Below, piece by piece: positions 49,962 to 58,339 of a stretch of 64,000 nt of DNA. The first letter of the stretch is position 1. Every line of letters begins with the position of its first letter. The translations under genes were made by a program, and so were the position numbers. Location of the stretch: assembly GCF_000969985.1 (NCBI RefSeq), contig NZ_CP009526.1, positions 1,612,001-1,676,000 on the forward strand, in the 5' to 3' direction. Below the pieces are notes generated by a model, which saw only the letters and a program-made list of their open reading frames with translations, was not told where the DNA came from and searched no databases. Source of the DNA: Methanosarcina barkeri str. Wiesmoor. Its GTDB lineage: Archaea; Halobacteriota; Methanosarcinia; Methanosarcinales; Methanosarcinaceae.

Positions 49962-50348
49962 ATGACAGATTGTGATCTTTGCGGACGTGCACTCCCGAGC
50001 GTTATTCCTGTCCGGGTTTTCCGTTCCCGCCTCAAATTCGCCTATCCTGAGGGTATCTGGAAAGGTCTCTGTGAGGCCTGTCTCGATTCCGCACAGGAAA
50101 CCTATTTAAGCATCAATAAAGACGAAATCTCCTGCAGAAGAAACAAATGCGTTCTGTGCGGTAAAAAAGGCAGGGTTTACCCTGTGGAAATTCAGATTCC
50201 CGATTTTTCAAAGGGAGTCGTAATAAAAAAGGTAAATGTCTGCACAAAATGCCTGGATTCTATCAATGAGACTTATATCAGGTTCAAAAGAGAGCAGATT
50301 GAGGGTTCGGTTTGTGAACACGGGCATGGGAACGTTCCTGAGCATTGA
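49962..50348 (+). CDS. fpoO: FpoO, Methanosarcina-type F420H2 dehydrogenase accessory subunit
   Basis: This is a 128-residue soluble protein with four Cys pairs: CDLC (4-7), CEAC, CVLC and CTKC. They could hold a zinc or Fe-S centre. FpoO has no counterpart in bacterial complex I and is known from the Methanosarcina fpo operon; its exact role is unclear. An ATG lies 13 bases after the fpoN stop, behind AAGGAG. A hairpin terminator follows it. Confidence 0.92.
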   Translation: MTDCDLCGRALPSVIPVRVFRSRLKFAYPEGIWKGLCEACLDSAQETYLSINKDEISCRRNKCVLCGKKGRVYPVEIQIPDFSKGVVIKKVNVCTKCLDSINETYIRFKREQIEGSVCEHGHGNVPEH

Positions 50349-50356
50349 ATTTGAGT

Positions 50357-50392
50357 AAAGCTGCATTTTGCGGCTTTATTTTTCTTATTTTT
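50357..50392 (+). terminator. fpo operon terminator
   Basis: AAAGCTGC pairs with GCGGCTTT (8 bp, one T-G pair, loop ATTTT), followed by ATTTTTCTTATTTTTT. It starts 9 bases after the fpoO stop. Confidence 0.75.
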
Positions 50393-50881
50393 TGATCTAG
50401 GTGCTTCTATGAAGACATTTCATTGAATTTACTCATTCCGGACACTATTTTTATTTTCCTATATTGAGACTGTTCTTTCGCTCATGTTTTTACAAAACAT
50501 CTCTATCATACCAATTCTTACGTCAGTATTTTAAAAGGTTATTTTTATAAAGAAGTCAAAAGAACTTTTAAAAAAATGTTTTTTAAACATATCTAATAAA
50601 AAAATAGAAAGTTTTATATGTTTTTCTTGTGTTTAAACTGTTGTATATTTTTTATTAATTATATACATGTTTTTTATATGTATACTGTAGGCATGGTTCC
50701 CAAAATACCAGGATGCAAAGGCGAGGTAGGGAAAGGAATTTGGTTCCATAGAATTCATGGTTTAACGGGAAAAATAGGTGTGGTTTTCGGAATGAATCTT
50801 GAATAAGAGGTTTCAGCGAATTATTGGTTTGAGAATCCAAAACTGAGATGGTTAGAATTTGAAGGCAGGGGTGTAGATTTA
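50393..50881. other. Spacer before the giant RHS gene
   Basis: AT-rich, with TATA-like tracts around 50640-50690 that probably include the promoter. A 62-codon frame at 50618-50806 has no ribosome site or family and is not called. The ribosome site GGCAGGGGTG lies 9 bases before the ATG at 50882. Confidence 0.45.
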
Positions 50882-53800
50882 ATGAAAATAAGTAGGCAAA
50901 TCATTTGCTCATTTATATTTATTGTTTTTTTGATGATGATTACAGGAATTTCGGCAGCAGAAAATACTAACATGAGTTTCGTGGGTCACACAGGTGGTTG
51001 GATTAGTAATGTTGCCGTGGCTGAAAATTATGCATATGTTGGAGAAGGTCAGGACTTTGTTGTATTGGACATTAAGGATGTTAATAAGCCAAAAGAAGTG
51101 GGAAAAGTAGCTATTTCAGGCTTGGTAGGTGACATCGCTATATCAGGCAACTATGCCTATATAACGGAAAACATCAGTCTAGTGATTGTGGATATTTCTA
51201 ATCCATCATTGCCAAAAATCGTAGGTAGCTATAGTTTGACCAACAGTTTGGCTAGCGGTGTTACAGTATCGGGGAATTACGCTTATGTTAGCTGTCTTAG
51301 GGGTTTTGTCGCTTTGGATATTTCCAACCCGTCAATGCCAACATTAGTAGGGAGGTATACTTATAATACTTATCCTGCAAGTTATACGTCTGATATTATC
51401 ATATCAGGCAACTATGCCTATGTGCCTTTCAGAAACTATGGCCTTCACATTGTTGATATAAGTAATCAATCGTCGCCAACACGTATAGCTATGTTTGATA
51501 CTATAAATGTGGTTCAGGTCGCAATATCAAGCAATTACGCCTATGCAACCAGTGGTGATAACGGTCTTGCTATAATTGATATCAGTAATCTTTCATCTCC
51601 AACACTTGTGGGGAGTTACAATCCCACTGATGCACGTCCAACTGGTATTGCAGTATCAGACAATTATGCGTATATAGCCAATGCAAATAGTGGAGACAAT
51701 GGGTTCACAGTCCTAGACATCACTAATGTTTCTTCTCCAAAATTAGTGGGAAAGTATGCGACAGGGTCTTCGGATTATGTTACGCTTTCTGGCAACCAAG
51801 CTTATGTAATTAATGACCAAACAGGTCTTGCTATTATAAGCATAGCAGATAAATCGTCCCCAACGCTTTTAAGCAGCTACAATTCCATCGGTGGAGCGCG
51901 TGATGTTGCAGTATCGGGCAATTATGCATACGTAGCTGACGAATCAAAGGGTCTTTCGGTTATCGACATTACAGATCCATCTTTGCCAAGATTTGCAGAC
52001 AGGTATTATAATAGTGGGACTACATATGCCGTTGCAGTATCAGGCAATTATGCATACTTGGCTAGCGGAGATAACAAACTTGTGATTGTCGATATTTCAA
52101 ATTTATCTTCCCTCAAATTTGCGAGCAGTTGTTATACCGGTTACTCGTTTTATTCTACAGATATAGATATAGTAGGCACTTATGCTTATATAGCCTATAA
52201 CGGTGGTATTGCAATTGTAGACGTCGCGAATCCCTTGTTACCAAAACTGATAAGCAAGTATGATGTTGGTGATATTGTGACCGGTATTGCCGTGGAAGGT
52301 GATTACGCCTACATAGCCGATAACGCTGGTCTCATTATAGTTGATATCACAAATACTTCTTCACCTAAACTTGTAGGCAAGTATATTACTGGTGCAATTA
52401 CATTTGATATTGCTGTAGCAGGTAATTATGCATATATAGCCAACATGGTCAATGGCTGGAATGGGATTTTAGTTGTTGATGTCACAAATCGTTCCTCACC
52501 AACGCTTGCAGGTAAGATTTCTGTTCCTGCTGAAGGCATTAGTATATCAGATAACTGTGCATATGTAAGTTGGTTTGATGGTCTTTACGCTGTTGATATC
52601 ACTAATCCTTCCTCGCCAATAGTTGTAGGTCATTATGGCACTGCTGGTGTAGCATCCAATTCTTGCACTCAAGATAGTTATGTCTATGTAGCTGATGAGA
52701 GAAATGGACTTGTTATTTTAAAGACAGATATTCAGAATCCTGAGCCAGTGCCGCCTAAGAGTGATATTCCAAGCTCTACTTATGGTTCTCCAAGTTCCAA
52801 TCCAAATGGGGCTTATTCCAAAGAACCAGTAAATTTGGGAACTGGCAGCTATTTCTACCAATATCAAGATTTGTCTATTCCTGGTCGTGGCTTACCTCTG
52901 ACAGTTTCTCGTTCCTATAATTCTATGGATAATCGCAGTGGGCTCTTCGGTTCTGGCTGGACATTCAATTATAACATGAATTTAACTGTTGATAATAACG
53001 GTAATGTAACTGTTTTGGGAGGAGATGGTCACACTGACACATATATTCTAAATCCAGATGGTACTTATTCTCGGCCTTTGAGTGTTTTTGATGATTTAAT
53101 CAAAAATTCGGATGAGACTTACACTTTAACCAAGAAAGACCAAACTAAGTATAACTTTTCCTCTGAAGGTAAACTGGTCAATATAGTAGATAAGAATGGT
53201 AACCAAATTAATTTCACATATACTGGCGAACAACTTACTAAAGTGACTGACGCTTCCGGAAGAGAACTGATTTTAGCTTATGATCACAATGGTCACATTA
53301 TCTCAATTACTGATCCAATGGGCAGGGTTTGGAGTTATTCCTATGATGATCAGGGCAATTTGATACAGTGTAAGAACCCGATAGGCGGAAAATTGAGTTA
53401 TACATATGATGAAAATCACTGGATGACCTCGATAACTGATCCTCGAGGAAACCATCCCATGAAAAATACCTATGATGAGAAAGGGCATGTAATCAGCCAG
53501 AGTAATTCTCTCAATGCAACTTATACCTTTAATTACGACTCAGAAAATCGAAAGACTACTGAAACGGATCCATTTGGCAAGAATAAAACTTATTCATTCG
53601 ATGAACATTTCTGGGAACTGAATGAAACTAATCAATTAGGATATACGATTTCTTATGCCTATGACGAAAACGGTAACAGGATTAGTGTTACTAACGAAAA
53701 CAGTAAGACTACCAAACTTGCCTACGACGCCAATGGCAATATCATTAAGACAACTAATCCCTTGGGCTACAGTAAATCAATGACTTATGACTCAAAAAAT

Positions 53801-56800
53801 AATCTGATTAGCCAGACTGATGAGTTGAGGCATAAAACCTCTTTTGAATACGATGATAATAGCAATCTTATTAAGAGTATAGACGCTCTTGGCCATGAGA
53901 CTGTTTTCAGTTATGACAAATATGGGCAAGTTATAGGCGAGACTGACTCCAACAAAAAAACCGCAACTTTTAGTTATAACAATAACGGTGATCAAATTAC
54001 AATCACTGATGCTAATGGAAAAACTTCAGCCTTTACTTATGATACTGTAGGCAGAGTAACTACCAAAACTGATGCAAAAGGTAATAGATATACATTTCAG
54101 TATGATGCCCTTGACAATCTCCTAAGCATCACCGATCCTATGGGACAAACTACAAGTAACAAATACGATGCTGCTGGAAATAAAATTAGTTTTACAGATG
54201 CTGAAGGTAGATTAACAAAGTATTCTTACGACTCTTTAAATCAGTTAGTTAAAGTAACGAATGCAATGGGTGGAGTAGTTAGGTACAAATATGATGCCGT
54301 TGGCAATCTGGTTTCCACGACAGACGCAAAAGGGCATAAAACAAGCTATGATTACGATCCACTAAATCGCCAGGTCTCTGTTACTAATGCATTAGGGAAA
54401 ACTACACGTAACAAATATGATGCGATTGGCAATAAAATTAGTATTACTAATGCATATGGAAAGTCAACAAGGTATTCTTACAACTCCTTAAATCAGTTAG
54501 TTAAAGTAACGAATGCAATGGGTAAAGTAGTTAGGTACAACTATGATGCTGTTGGAAATCTGATCTCCACAACAGATGAAAATGGGCATAAAATAAACTA
54601 CGGTTACGATTCCCTAAATCGCCAGGTCTCTGTTACTGATGCATTAAGGAAAACTACACGTAACAAATATGATGCGGTTGGCAATAAAATTAGTATTACT
54701 AATGCATATGGAAAGTCAACAAGGTATTCTTACAACTCCTTAAATCAGTTAGTTAAAGTAACGGATGCAATGGGTGGAGTAGTTAGGTACAACTATGATG
54801 CTGTAGGAAATCTGATCTCCACAACAGATGCAAATGGGCGTAAAACAAACTATGGCTACGATTCCCTAAATCGCCAAGTCTCTATTACTAATGCATTAGG
54901 GAAAACTACACGTAACAAATATGATGCGGTTGGAAACAAAATTAGTTCTACTGATGCAAATTGGAGATTAACAAAATATTCTTACGACTCTTTAAATCGG
55001 TTAGTTAAAGTAACGGATGCAATGGGTGGAGTAGTTAGGTACACCTATGACGCCGTAGGAAATCTGATCTCCACAACAGATGCAAAAGGGCATAAAACAG
55101 ACTATGGTTATGATTCATTAGATCGTCAAGTTTCTATTACTGATCCATTGGGAAGAACTGCACGTAACAAATATGATGCGGTTGGAAACAAAATTAGTTC
55201 TACTGATGAAGATGGGAAGACCACTTCTTACGGTTATGATGTTTTAAATCGCCTAACAAAGGTTTCCTACCCTGATGATCAAAAAGTGAGTTACAACTAT
55301 GATGCCGTAGGGAATCGCTTGACGATGAAAGATAGCCATGGAACAACTGCATATAAGTACGATAAACTGAATCGCTTGCTTAGTGTTCTCAACCCCGATG
55401 GCCAAAAAGTGAGCTACACGTATAATAAAGTTGGGAATCGCGTTAAAATGACGTATCCTGATGGCAAGACGACTTCTTATTCTTATGATGCTGTCAATAG
55501 GTTAATAGGTGTAATTGATTCGGATGGTCATATTACAAGTTATTCTTATGCTAAAAATGGTAATTTGAAAACTATGAACACTCCTAATGGGGTAAAGACA
55601 GAATATTCCTATGATAAAGCCAACAGATTGGTTGAATTAATTAATAAAAACACAACTCAGGTTGTTTCAAGTTATAAGTACACCCTGGATGCTGCAGGCA
55701 ATCGTTTAAAAGTTGATGAGCAACTTGCGGAAGGGGTCGAGTCTGGAGATTCAGAGTTAAAAGAGTCACAGCTTTTGACTACTACATATGGATATGATAA
55801 GCTCTATCGCTTAACCAAAGTCGATTATCCTTCTAACAAGACTGTAAGTTACAAATATGACTCTATGGGCAATAGAATTAGCATGACTACAAATGTTGAC
55901 GGGATCGGCTCGACTATTAGTTACAAATATGATGCTGCTGATCAACTTTTGCAATCAGGGAATATCTCTTATTCATATGACAAAAAAGGAAATCTAATAA
56001 AAAAGAGAGTAAACTCAACACAGTTTATGTCTTACAGTTATGATGAGGCAAATAGATTAAAAAATGTTTCCGAATTCGTAAGTAACACTAATACTCCAAA
56101 ATCTTCGTATAATTTTGAATATGATGGAGACGGAAACCGCATCATAAAAACGACAATAAACGGCGAGAACGCACAGTCCACCAAATATGTATTGGACATC
56201 AACAGCGCTTTACCCCAGGTGCTCACCGAATCAGATACAAAAAACACAACCTGCTACACTTATGGAACAGACCTTATTTCCATGACCAATTCTGAAAACG
56301 CAGAATACTATTACCATTATGATGGACTGGGAAGTGTACGCAGTCTCAGCGACAGCAAAGGAATAATTAAAAATACTTACTTGTATGATGCTTTCGGACA
56401 GGTACAGAAGGAAATAGGTACAGTTGACAATGAATTCCGTTTCACAGGGGAACAAATGGATGATGAAACTGGGCTGATTTATCTTAGGGCAAGGTATTAT
56501 GACCCTAGTGTTGGAAGGTTTATTACCAAGGATGTAATCAAAGGTAGAAGGGTAACTACGCAGAGCATCAATCGTTATGTGTATACAACAAATAACCCGG
56601 TAAATCTAGTCGATCTAACTGGTTATTGTGGAGATAAGGTAAATAGTAGAAGTTCCAATCAAAGAGATACGTTTTCAGATTTATTAAATTTAGCTACTGA
56701 CATTATGCCTTTGTATCTTGAATCGTTAGTAGTTCTTGGAAGACCAGAGATTGCCACGACAGGACAGCTTAACCTTTGGGAAGGGGCTTTTTTAAATCAA

Positions 56801-57172
56801 AATAACGATCTACTGGATTATGCAGACAAAATTGCAACTCCTATTAATTTACTACAAGCTGCTTTCGATGCAGGTATAACCCCAAAAGAAATGGCCAACG
56901 TATGGTTTAATTCTCAGGAAAGGGATGAATCAATAAATTGGTTGCTAGAAAATCCTGATAAACTGGGAGATGTTTACAATGAATTTACTACCGATTTTTA
57001 TGCCACTGCTTCAAACGCTTTCTTGGAAGATACACGAATCGCTCCTGTTGTGTATTATGCTACACAAGGTCAGGTAGATTTACGTATCACAGGAGAGGAG
57101 GTGAGAGAAAACTTTGTGAAGCCTATCTCAGATGGACTAGCCGACTGGTTATATTATCATAATTTGTATTGA
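50882..57172 (+). CDS. Giant secreted LVIVD-propeller / RHS-YD repeat protein, polymorphic-toxin-like
   Basis: This is a 2096-residue protein. A signal peptide (1-25) leads into about 14 LVIVD repeats (about 30-615; pattern YAYVA...GL-IVDISNPS-P-LVG-Y), which fold as beta-propellers. After a Pro/Ser linker comes a DUF6531-like entry domain (PVNLGTGSYFYQYQDLSIPG, about 655), then some 50 YD repeats (GNLISTTDANG type). The RHS core ends near residue 1910 (FRFTGEQMDDETGLIYLRAR, then DPSVGRFITKD and NNPVNLVDLTGY). The last 180 residues are a different, mainly helical domain that I do not recognise. This is the layout of RHS toxins, whose tip is released at the core. No membrane anchor is seen, and no immunity gene is recognisable next door. 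Confidence 0.9.
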   Translation: MKISRQIICSFIFIVFLMMITGISAAENTNMSFVGHTGGWISNVAVAENYAYVGEGQDFVVLDIKDVNKPKEVGKVAISGLVGDIAISGNYAYITENISLVIVDISNPSLPKIVGSYSLTNSLASGVTVSGNYAYVSCLRGFVALDISNPSMPTLVGRYTYNTYPASYTSDIIISGNYAYVPFRNYGLHIVDISNQSSPTRIAMFDTINVVQVAISSNYAYATSGDNGLAIIDISNLSSPTLVGSYNPTDARPTGIAVSDNYAYIANANSGDNGFTVLDITNVSSPKLVGKYATGSSDYVTLSGNQAYVINDQTGLAIISIADKSSPTLLSSYNSIGGARDVAVSGNYAYVADESKGLSVIDITDPSLPRFADRYYNSGTTYAVAVSGNYAYLASGDNKLVIVDISNLSSLKFASSCYTGYSFYSTDIDIVGTYAYIAYNGGIAIVDVANPLLPKLISKYDVGDIVTGIAVEGDYAYIADNAGLIIVDITNTSSPKLVGKYITGAITFDIAVAGNYAYIANMVNGWNGILVVDVTNRSSPTLAGKISVPAEGISISDNCAYVSWFDGLYAVDITNPSSPIVVGHYGTAGVASNSCTQDSYVYVADERNGLVILKTDIQNPEPVPPKSDIPSSTYGSPSSNPNGAYSKEPVNLGTGSYFYQYQDLSIPGRGLPLTVSRSYNSMDNRSGLFGSGWTFNYNMNLTVDNNGNVTVLGGDGHTDTYILNPDGTYSRPLSVFDDLIKNSDETYTLTKKDQTKYNFSSEGKLVNIVDKNGNQINFTYTGEQLTKVTDASGRELILAYDHNGHIISITDPMGRVWSYSYDDQGNLIQCKNPIGGKLSYTYDENHWMTSITDPRGNHPMKNTYDEKGHVISQSNSLNATYTFNYDSENRKTTETDPFGKNKTYSFDEHFWELNETNQLGYTISYAYDENGNRISVTNENSKTTKLAYDANGNIIKTTNPLGYSKSMTYDSKNNLISQTDELRHKTSFEYDDNSNLIKSIDALGHETVFSYDKYGQVIGETDSNKKTATFSYNNNGDQITITDANGKTSAFTYDTVGRVTTKTDAKGNRYTFQYDALDNLLSITDPMGQTTSNKYDAAGNKISFTDAEGRLTKYSYDSLNQLVKVTNAMGGVVRYKYDAVGNLVSTTDAKGHKTSYDYDPLNRQVSVTNALGKTTRNKYDAIGNKISITNAYGKSTRYSYNSLNQLVKVTNAMGKVVRYNYDAVGNLISTTDENGHKINYGYDSLNRQVSVTDALRKTTRNKYDAVGNKISITNAYGKSTRYSYNSLNQLVKVTDAMGGVVRYNYDAVGNLISTTDANGRKTNYGYDSLNRQVSITNALGKTTRNKYDAVGNKISSTDANWRLTKYSYDSLNRLVKVTDAMGGVVRYTYDAVGNLISTTDAKGHKTDYGYDSLDRQVSITDPLGRTARNKYDAVGNKISSTDEDGKTTSYGYDVLNRLTKVSYPDDQKVSYNYDAVGNRLTMKDSHGTTAYKYDKLNRLLSVLNPDGQKVSYTYNKVGNRVKMTYPDGKTTSYSYDAVNRLIGVIDSDGHITSYSYAKNGNLKTMNTPNGVKTEYSYDKANRLVELINKNTTQVVSSYKYTLDAAGNRLKVDEQLAEGVESGDSELKESQLLTTTYGYDKLYRLTKVDYPSNKTVSYKYDSMGNRISMTTNVDGIGSTISYKYDAADQLLQSGNISYSYDKKGNLIKKRVNSTQFMSYSYDEANRLKNVSEFVSNTNTPKSSYNFEYDGDGNRIIKTTINGENAQSTKYVLDINSALPQVLTESDTKNTTCYTYGTDLISMTNSENAEYYYHYDGLGSVRSLSDSKGIIKNTYLYDAFGQVQKEIGTVDNEFRFTGEQMDDETGLIYLRARYYDPSVGRFITKDVIKGRRVTTQSINRYVYTTNNPVNLVDLTGYCGDKVNSRSSNQRDTFSDLLNLATDIMPLYLESLVVLGRPEIATTGQLNLWEGAFLNQNNDLLDYADKIATPINLLQAAFDAGITPKEMANVWFNSQERDESINWLLENPDKLGDVYNEFTTDFYATASNAFLEDTRIAPVVYYATQGQVDLRITGEEVRENFVKPISDGLADWLYYHNLY
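54170..55190 (+). repeat. 252-bp (84-residue) repeat, four tandem copies inside the RHS gene
   Basis: The segment around ggtattcttacaactcctt recurs at about 54220, 54472, 54724 and 54976, exactly 252 bp apart. Each unit holds four 21-residue YD repeats. Copies 2 and 3 are nearly identical at DNA level, so the array expanded recently or is kept uniform by gene conversion. Confidence 0.9.
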
Positions 57173-57295
57173 GATTCACATTTCGACCCCTCCTCTCAAA
57201 AATAAGGTGAATTTTGCAACAACTGAATCAAATTGCGGATGGCCACTCCACCATAAAAAGGCTGTCCGACAATTACGTTCAGTAATAAATGAATT

Positions 57296-57710
57296 TAGAC
57301 CCCTTGAAAAATGAGTAGTTTTTTAAGGGATATTATATCTTATTTGCCCAATTAAATATGGTATCAGCTCTCCCCCCGTTAAAGTACATCCATTAAAGGA
57401 TCTATTTGCTGTTTAAATGATTTAAGTACTTTAATTGGTAAATTAAACGTTGATTTTTTCCTTACTTTTAGCATTGAATTTTGTATGGATGAAAATGACA
57501 TCAGATGCCTTATTTATAAACAAACATAAATTGTAAAAGAATAAAGTATTTATCTCGCTTTCTTCTTGATTTAAAAGAGTATTATAAATTATTTATCTAA
57601 AAAATTGATTTTTAGAGTTTACCTTAATTGGGGAAACTCTAAATGCATACCTATTATCCAAAATAATCACTGTATACCCTTAGTTTTAGTACTGATTTGG
57701 AAGGACCCTA
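57296..57710 (-). mobile_element. MITE-like element, copy B
   Basis: This 415-bp sequence is the reverse complement of the element at 27931-28344 with few differences and matching ends (TAGACCCCTTG at 57296, GGAAGGACCCTA at 57710). The flanks (aatgaatt and tttacttt) do not form a target duplication, so this copy is older, recombined or inserted differently. It lies just after the RHS gene, where an immunity gene would be expected. Confidence 0.85.
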
Positions 57711-57841
57711 TTTACTTTGTGAATCTTGATACGAATTTTACAGCATAAAAAGCAAATTTATTAAAGTCTTTCAGACTTTTAATAAGTAATTTTCTTATAT
57801 CTGTATAAACTGATTATGTATATTTGCCGGATGTTGTCAAA

Positions 57842-58339
57842 ATGAATTTTGAATTGCGAAAGTGGAACAAAACCGATGTTGAAAGCTTTTTCAAGTATTC
57901 CCACAATACAAAAATTGCAAAAAACATGAGAGATTCTTTTCCCTCCACTTTAGATGACTGCAGAAAAACTGTAGAAAGCTTTAGCTGTAACGATGAAACA
58001 CAACAGTGTTGCAGAGCAATTGTTGTGAACGGAGAAACTGCAGGGTGCATTGCATTATTCCTTAAAAGCGATGTTTATTGTAAGAATGCAGAAATTGCAT
58101 ACTGGCTTGGTGAACCTTTTTGGGGCAGGGGAATAATGAGCGAAGCAATAAAACAACTTTGTCGGACAGCTTTTGAACAGTATGATATTGTCCGGATATT
58201 TGCAGAGCCTTATGCACAAAATATCGGCTCAAGAAAAGCTCTTGAAAAAGCCGGATTTGTTTTAGAGGGCATAATGAAGAAAGGTGTCTATAAAAATGGT
58301 AATTTTTTTGATTATTGTATGTATGCTCTTGTGAAATAA
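57842..58339 (+). CDS. GNAT acetyltransferase (RimJ/RimL-like)
   Basis: This is a 165-residue N-acetyltransferase. It contains EIAYWLGEPFWGRGIMSEAI, which includes the acetyl-CoA-binding loop (G-x-G in WGRGIM), then RIFAEPYAQNIGSRKALEKAGFVLEG, a typical RimJ/RimL ending. Substrates of this class include ribosomal protein N-termini, antibiotics and polyamines; none is indicated. ATG 57842 is chosen over a TTG six codons earlier. It is the first gene after the RHS gene and the MITE copy. Confidence 0.85.
   Translation: MNFELRKWNKTDVESFFKYSHNTKIAKNMRDSFPSTLDDCRKTVESFSCNDETQQCCRAIVVNGETAGCIALFLKSDVYCKNAEIAYWLGEPFWGRGIMSEAIKQLCRTAFEQYDIVRIFAEPYAQNIGSRKALEKAGFVLEGIMKKGVYKNGNFFDYCMYALVK

What the first reader, a model, noticed from the sequence alone, without database searches (positions are those of the whole stretch)
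50882..57172. Archaeal LVIVD-propeller plus RHS protein with a distinct C-terminal tip
A 2096-residue secreted protein joins about 14 LVIVD repeats, an RHS/YD shell and a core ending near DPSVGRF, followed by about 180 residues unlike the rest. In bacteria this layout delivers toxins. An archaeal version with a propeller targeting module and a Sec signal instead of secretion-system markers would be a different delivery design. The tip domain is not one I recognise and shows no obvious nuclease or deaminase residues.
Basis: partly seen in the sequence, partly recalled or inferred. Interest (0 to 1): 0.72.

Follow-up and report, generated by a model that had tools for sequence, protein, structure and literature searches.

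The report
Methanosarcina surface Rhs protein, swapped tip
A methane-producing archaeon encodes a giant secreted protein that joins a beta-propeller to an Rhs cage of the kind bacteria use to carry toxins; its C-terminal tip has been exchanged relative to its nearest relatives, but it lacks the neighbouring immunity gene that true Rhs toxins in the same archaeal family carry, so toxicity is plausible and unproven.

Summary
In detail: an intact 2096-aa ORF with a Sec signal, 14 LVIVD repeats, DUF6531, 25 RHS/YD repeats, an Rhs-associated core ending at residue 1915, and a 181-aa C-terminal tip without database relatives. The tip is swapped: the two nearest core relatives (Methanosarcina sp. KYL-1 and a Methanosarcinaceae MAG) are 63-65% identical up to the core, and their tips are unrelated at shuffle level. 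The protein is a chimera: its propeller is 71% identical to a non-RHS surface protein. It fills a variable slot behind fpoO that holds other giant propeller proteins elsewhere in the genus. Archaeal Rhs toxins are not new: 25 of 112 family genomes carry Rhs cores, mostly Tc-like genes with nuclease tips and adjacent immunity genes (33/38), a type reported for M. acetivorans in 2012. The LVIVD-linked clade differs: no immunity-sized ORF follows (0/3), and the window's cleavage motifs are partly degenerate (DLTG for DPxG; E for the N-plug D). Best reading: a Sec-exported Rhs cage with exchangeable cargo on a generic surface propeller, possibly an effector aimed at other species; a non-toxic adhesin-like role stays open. 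No usable tip structure was obtained (pLDDT 36).

The parts
50882..57172 (+). whole gene, 2096 aa secreted LVIVD-RHS protein
50882..50956 (+). Sec-type signal peptide, residues 1-25
   Evidence: sequence: basic n-region, hydrophobic h-region, SAA end
50957..52756 (+). 14 LVIVD repeats, residues 26-625, probably two 7-bladed propellers; 71% identical to the propeller of a non-RHS surface protein in another genus
   Evidence: four-strand repeats in a low-to-moderate-confidence AF2 model; the two-propeller count is inference
52823..53044 (+). DUF6531 (Rhs N-terminal plug region), residues 648-721; the aspartate expected before the PV motif is Glu (EPVNLGTG)
   Evidence: motif from PMC8636562
53159..56383 (+). 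RHS/YD repeat shell
56384..56623 (+). Rhs-associated core, residues 1835-1914, ending ...NNPVNLVDLTG; the putative autoprotease Asp (D1911) is kept, DPxG is changed to DLTG
56627..57169 (+). exchangeable C-terminal tip, residues 1916-2096, acidic (pI 4.2), mostly helical in a model too poor to use, no detectable relatives
50582..50861 (+). upstream region homologous (72-77%) to the sequence before giant propeller genes in the same fpoO slot of other species and before the G007 propeller gene
50393..57734 (.). variable insert between fpoO and the GNAT gene; in G094 the same interval is 43 nt
49962..50348 (+). fpoO, left border of the slot
   Evidence: name from position in the fpo operon and family knowledge
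57173..57823 (.). no sense ORF over 47 aa with a start codon: no adjacent immunity gene
57824..58339 (+). GNAT acetyltransferase, right border of the slot, conserved in species without the RHS gene, so not an immunity gene

Best explanation
A chimeric secreted Rhs protein with exchangeable cargo. It is exported by Sec (inferred from the signal) and held at or near the cell surface through its LVIVD propellers, a generic extracellular module in this family (inferred). The RHS/YD shell forms a hollow beta-cage closed by an N-plug (DUF6531) and the core, as in solved Rhs proteins (homology), and encloses or displays the C-terminal tip. The tip is a swappable unit: shell and core are inherited while the tip is replaced (shown). 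Most likely the tip is an effector delivered to neighbouring cells of other species, for which no kin immunity gene is kept (inferred). Cage opening is uncertain, because the cleavage motifs are partly degenerate.
For: Rhs family markers and sequence matches to solved Rhs cages, E down to 3e-75. Tip exchange: 63-74% identity over the last 300 residues before the tip among three proteins, tip alignment z-scores -1.3 to 0.4. Chimera: propeller 71% identical to a non-RHS protein, RHS part nearest to KYL-1, the MAG and then Anaerolineae proteins. Tips are variable among 27 Anaerolineae relatives too. The same archaeal family holds Rhs genes with recognisable toxin tips: colicin D, colicin DNase, WHH, barnase-type ribonuclease, GIY-YIG. 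The slot carries giant secreted propeller proteins in other species, which fits surface display. No VgrG-type spike in the genome.
Against: No toxin family matches the tip. No immunity-sized ORF within 250 nt in any of the 3 members of this clade, against 33 of 38 in the other Rhs loci. The cleavage motif is DLTG instead of DPxG and the N-plug Asp is Glu. One Rhs copy and no cassette array in the genome. Only three members of the clade are known, one truncated at a contig end.
Confidence: 0.5

Rival explanations
1. A non-toxic surface adhesin or recognition protein: the RHS cage serves as a rigid extracellular scaffold, as in teneurins, and the tip is a fast-changing binding or self-recognition domain. 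This needs no immunity gene and no cleavage.
For: No immunity gene in 0/3; degenerate cleavage motifs; location in a slot otherwise filled by giant propeller surface proteins; teneurin-like proteins are among the sequence matches; propeller shared with PKD/LGFP proteins.
Against: Whole-domain replacement at the core boundary is typical of toxin tips rather than gradual divergence of a binding domain; D1911 and the core are kept.
Confidence: 0.32
2. A classical Rhs polymorphic toxin with kin immunity, like the M. acetivorans loci, whose immunity gene lies elsewhere or has been lost.
For: Rhs core plus variable tip; true Rhs toxin-immunity loci in the same family.
Against: No immunity ORF in any of three loci and no cassettes; different N-terminal architecture, LVIVD/DUF6531 instead of SpvB/TcdB-mid.
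Confidence: 0.1
3. A decaying Rhs gene whose tip is a meaningless leftover.
For: Degenerate cleavage motifs; orphan tip with no relatives; species-restricted.
Against: 2096 codons intact, no stops; similar GC3 in tip and shell, 0.27 and 0.32; conserved upstream region.
Confidence: 0.08

Closest known systems
Rhs polymorphic toxins of bacteria (e.g. T6SS Rhs1/Tre23, Tse5, RhsA)
   Same: DUF6531 plug, YD shell, Rhs-associated core, C-terminal domain exchanged at the core boundary
   Different: LVIVD propeller and Sec signal instead of PAAR/TMD N-terminus; no immunity gene; DLTG instead of DPxG; tip without a known fold
Tc-like (SpvB/TcdB-mid/FG-GAP) Rhs toxin loci of Methanosarcinaceae; Rhs toxins with cassettes were reported for M. 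acetivorans by Zhang et al. 2012 (PMC3482391)
   Same: archaeal family, RHS repeats and core, variable tip
   Different: those have other N-terminal domains, often a shared pretoxin segment, nuclease tips, adjacent immunity genes (Imm64, barstar, SUKH, Imm26) and cassette arrays
RHS proteins of Methanosarcina sp. KYL-1 (L093/L113) and Methanosarcinaceae MAG Zod_Metabat.786 (L109/L114)
   Same: 63-65% identity over the last 300 residues before the tip, no immunity gene; KYL-1 also has LVIVD repeats and lies among fpoO copies
   Different: unrelated tips; KYL-1 has seven LVIVD repeats plus NosD/beta-helix; the MAG protein is cut off at its N-terminus
LVIVD surface proteins of Methanosarcinaceae (the repeat was defined in PMC2447325)
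   Same: propeller 71% identical to that of the G007 protein; Sec signal
   Different: they carry LGFP, PKD or M6-peptidase-like regions and no RHS
Teneurins
   Same: extracellular YD-shell protein used without immunity genes
   Different: eukaryotic, other domain architecture; weaker sequence matches here

Membership tests
Rhs/YD-repeat proteins | YD repeats plus Rhs-associated core above the curated cut-off | tested here: met
   PF05593 E 3e-186 with 25 stretches; TIGR03696 86.5 bits against 32.5
Rhs polymorphic toxin system | C-terminal domain replaced between relatives with a conserved core | tested here: met
   63-74% core identity, tip z-scores -1.3 to 0.4, three proteins
Rhs polymorphic toxin system | adjacent immunity gene | tested here: not met
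   no ORF over 47 aa in 57173-57823; 0/3 in the clade against 33/38 in other Rhs loci
Rhs polymorphic toxin system | standalone tip cassettes | tested here: not met
   one Rhs core in the genome
Rhs polymorphic toxin system | tip belongs to a known toxin family | tested here: not met
   no Pfam match; nothing significant in PDB or PHROGs
Rhs polymorphic toxin system | aspartyl autoproteolysis motif before the tip | tested here: inconclusive
   D1911 kept but DPxG is DLTG; N-plug Asp is Glu
Rhs polymorphic toxin system | tip is toxic | not testable with these tools
   needs an expression assay
T6SS-delivered Rhs effectors | VgrG-type spike in the genome, PAAR N-terminus | tested here: not met
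   no PF04717 match in the genome; no PAAR match in the protein
LVIVD repeat surface proteins | tandem PF08309 repeats after a signal peptide | tested here: met
   14 repeats, E 1e-137
Teneurin-like adhesins | cell-cell adhesion role of the YD shell | not testable with these tools
   no experiment; sequence cannot decide

The most novel reading that the evidence does not exclude
A Sec-exported, propeller-mounted Rhs cage that delivers swappable effectors without kin immunity, used by methanogens against bacterial neighbours or partners and shuffled through a dedicated surface-protein slot behind the fpo operon; the tip would be a new effector fold.
Probability: 0.25. Interest if true: 0.68.

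Novelty: new variant of a known kind. Interest (0 to 1): 0.42.

Why it matters
Weapons and recognition systems of methanogens are poorly known. This clade of Rhs proteins differs from the archaeal Rhs toxins already described in its N-terminal module, in lacking immunity genes and in its genomic slot. Whether a cage with an exchangeable tip can work without immunity, as an adhesin or against distant species, is directly testable here.

Tried and rejected
Tip structure by AF2 without an alignment: pLDDT 36, not used for fold search. Tip homologues by peptide-pattern scans of GTDB species and viral contigs, by tblastn in plasmids, in 393 genomes of the phylum (the best hit lies in a prolyl-oligopeptidase-like ORF by reading) and in 396 genomes of the class of the Brevefilum relative (best E 0.0025 per genome, chance over 396 genomes). 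By eye the window and KYL-1 tips looked alike (acidic, helical), but shuffles gave z 0.2-0.4. The downstream GNAT gene as immunity gene was rejected: it is a conserved neighbour in species without the RHS gene. LVIVD-RHS fusion in the Anaerolineae sample: not found (LVIVD ORFs were separate from Rhs cores). A shift in base composition at the tip was not seen. The 2019 mBio paper on archaeal toxins (PMC6509191) is not held, so it could not be checked for this clade.

Full report
The ORF is real and intact. Window 50882-57172 encodes 2096 residues. Pfam and NCBIfam give 14 LVIVD repeats, DUF6531 at 648-721, 25 RHS repeats and the Rhs-associated core at 1835-1914. The best PDB sequence matches are Rhs cages (Salmonella bongori Rhs core, other Rhs-family proteins, Tse5, Tre23, Tse15), with teneurin-like proteins weaker. 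The N-terminus reads as a Sec signal. The genome has a single Rhs core, and LVIVD repeats above the cut-off occur only in this gene apart from one orphan repeat at C2:2169519.

The organism is a Methanosarcina. The fpoN product is 94-97% identical to those of three genomes of the genus.

The tip varies while the shell is conserved. The nearest core relatives are KYL-1 (L093) and a Methanosarcinaceae MAG (L109). Over the last 300 residues before the tip the three proteins are 63-74% identical in pairs; over the tip, alignment scores lie inside the shuffle distribution (z -1.3 to 0.4). The change falls within about ten residues of the DPxG position. The tip has no Pfam, PDB or PHROG relative and none in family genomes, plasmids, GTDB species or viral contigs at the sensitivities used. 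It is acidic (pI 4.2). A single-sequence AF2 model is helical but unusable (pLDDT 36).

The protein is a chimera. Its propeller region (residues 26-623) is 71% identical to that of a G007 protein that continues with LGFP-like and PKD-like segments and no RHS, whereas its RHS half is nearest to KYL-1 and the MAG and then to Anaerolineae (Chloroflexi) proteins. KYL-1 has seven LVIVD repeats, a beta-helix and the same RHS half. In G075 (a 5.8-Mb Methanosarcina) an LVIVD propeller is fused to an M6-peptidase-like protein (named by reading the sequence). So LVIVD is a generic surface module here, not a toxin-specific targeting device.

Archaeal Rhs toxins were already known, and the family survey shows two types. 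25 of 112 family genomes have Rhs cores. Many loci are Tc-like: of six full-length proteins scanned, five have TcdB-mid and FG-GAP, three of these also SpvB, before the RHS repeats, and no LVIVD; the sixth is the LVIVD protein of KYL-1. Many share a pretoxin segment (YVETAIDLAFLAMD...), and tips match colicin D, colicin DNase, WHH, ribonuclease and GIY-YIG. Downstream genes include Imm64, barstar, SUKH and Imm26. Short core-plus-tip cassettes lie in arrays. Zhang et al. 2012 (PMC3482391) had described Rhs toxins with cassettes and immunity genes for M. acetivorans. An ORF of at least 100 aa starts within 250 nt downstream in 33 of 38 loci outside the window's clade, and in 0 of 3 inside it (Fisher p 0.005, but loci are not independent and the 38 include a few atypical loci). 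In the window the 650 nt after the stop hold no ORF over 47 aa.

Cleavage motifs are partly degenerate. In Rhs1 the catalytic Asp lies in the second DPLGL motif, and an Asp before the PV..(T/S)GE signature is needed for N-terminal cleavage (PMC8636562). The window has KDVIKG and VDLTGY (D1884, D1911) in place of two DPxG motifs and E648 in place of the N-plug Asp; KYL-1 keeps DP at all three places and the MAG protein at the two C-terminal ones.

The gene sits in a variable slot. In G094 fpoO and a GNAT gene are neighbours; aligned with the window, 50393-57734 is replaced by 43 nt. Other species have different inserts here: beta-helix proteins, YVTN-type propeller giants, a DUF3800-like gene, and truncated fpoO copies (names other than fpoO and GNAT by reading). 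About 260 nt upstream of the start are homologous to the sequence before propeller genes in the same slot of G083 and G097 and before the G007 propeller gene. This suggests an expression slot for giant surface proteins. In KYL-1 the Rhs gene is also flanked by fpoO copies.

Mechanism. Shown: architecture, tip exchange, chimera, slot, lack of an adjacent immunity gene. Inferred: Sec export, surface association through the propeller, a cage around the tip, delivery. An effector aimed at other species would need no kin immunity; Zhang et al. made that argument for PVC toxins lacking immunity genes. A non-toxic adhesin or recognition role explains the missing immunity gene and motif decay equally well and explains the slot better. 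I put the effector reading at 0.5 and the adhesin reading at 0.32.

Limits: three members in the clade, one truncated; one genome per species, so within-species tip variation was not tested; no metagenome scan; tip fold unknown.

Noticed in passing
window 49962-50392; L093, L111, L125, L129-L132, L135: fpoO, often with its 3' flank of about 45 nt, is repeatedly duplicated (many copies lack the first 14-33 codons) around inserted genes in many Methanosarcina species: an insertion hotspot directly behind the fpo operon.
   Followed up: partly
L097, L101, L102, L104, L105, L112 and others: Tc-like (SpvB/TcdB-mid/FG-GAP) Rhs genes with nuclease tips, immunity genes and tandem core-plus-tip cassettes occur in several genera of Methanosarcinaceae.
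   Followed up: partly
L111:5524-11871: A 2116-aa protein next to fpoO copies joins an LVIVD propeller, LGFP-like segments, an M6-peptidase-like domain and a PKD-like domain.
   Followed up: no
G000:C2:2169519-2169617: A lone LVIVD repeat in a 40-aa open frame elsewhere in the genome, possibly a gene remnant.
   Followed up: no
L093:801-1841 and L127:3442-4554: A similar minus-strand gene (DUF3800-like by reading) sits beside or between fpoO copies in two species and may be part of the inserted element.
   Followed up: no
L161-L180: Anaerolineae genomes hold many Rhs proteins with highly variable tips and, separately, LVIVD proteins; they are the nearest bacterial relatives of the window's RHS half.
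   Followed up: partly
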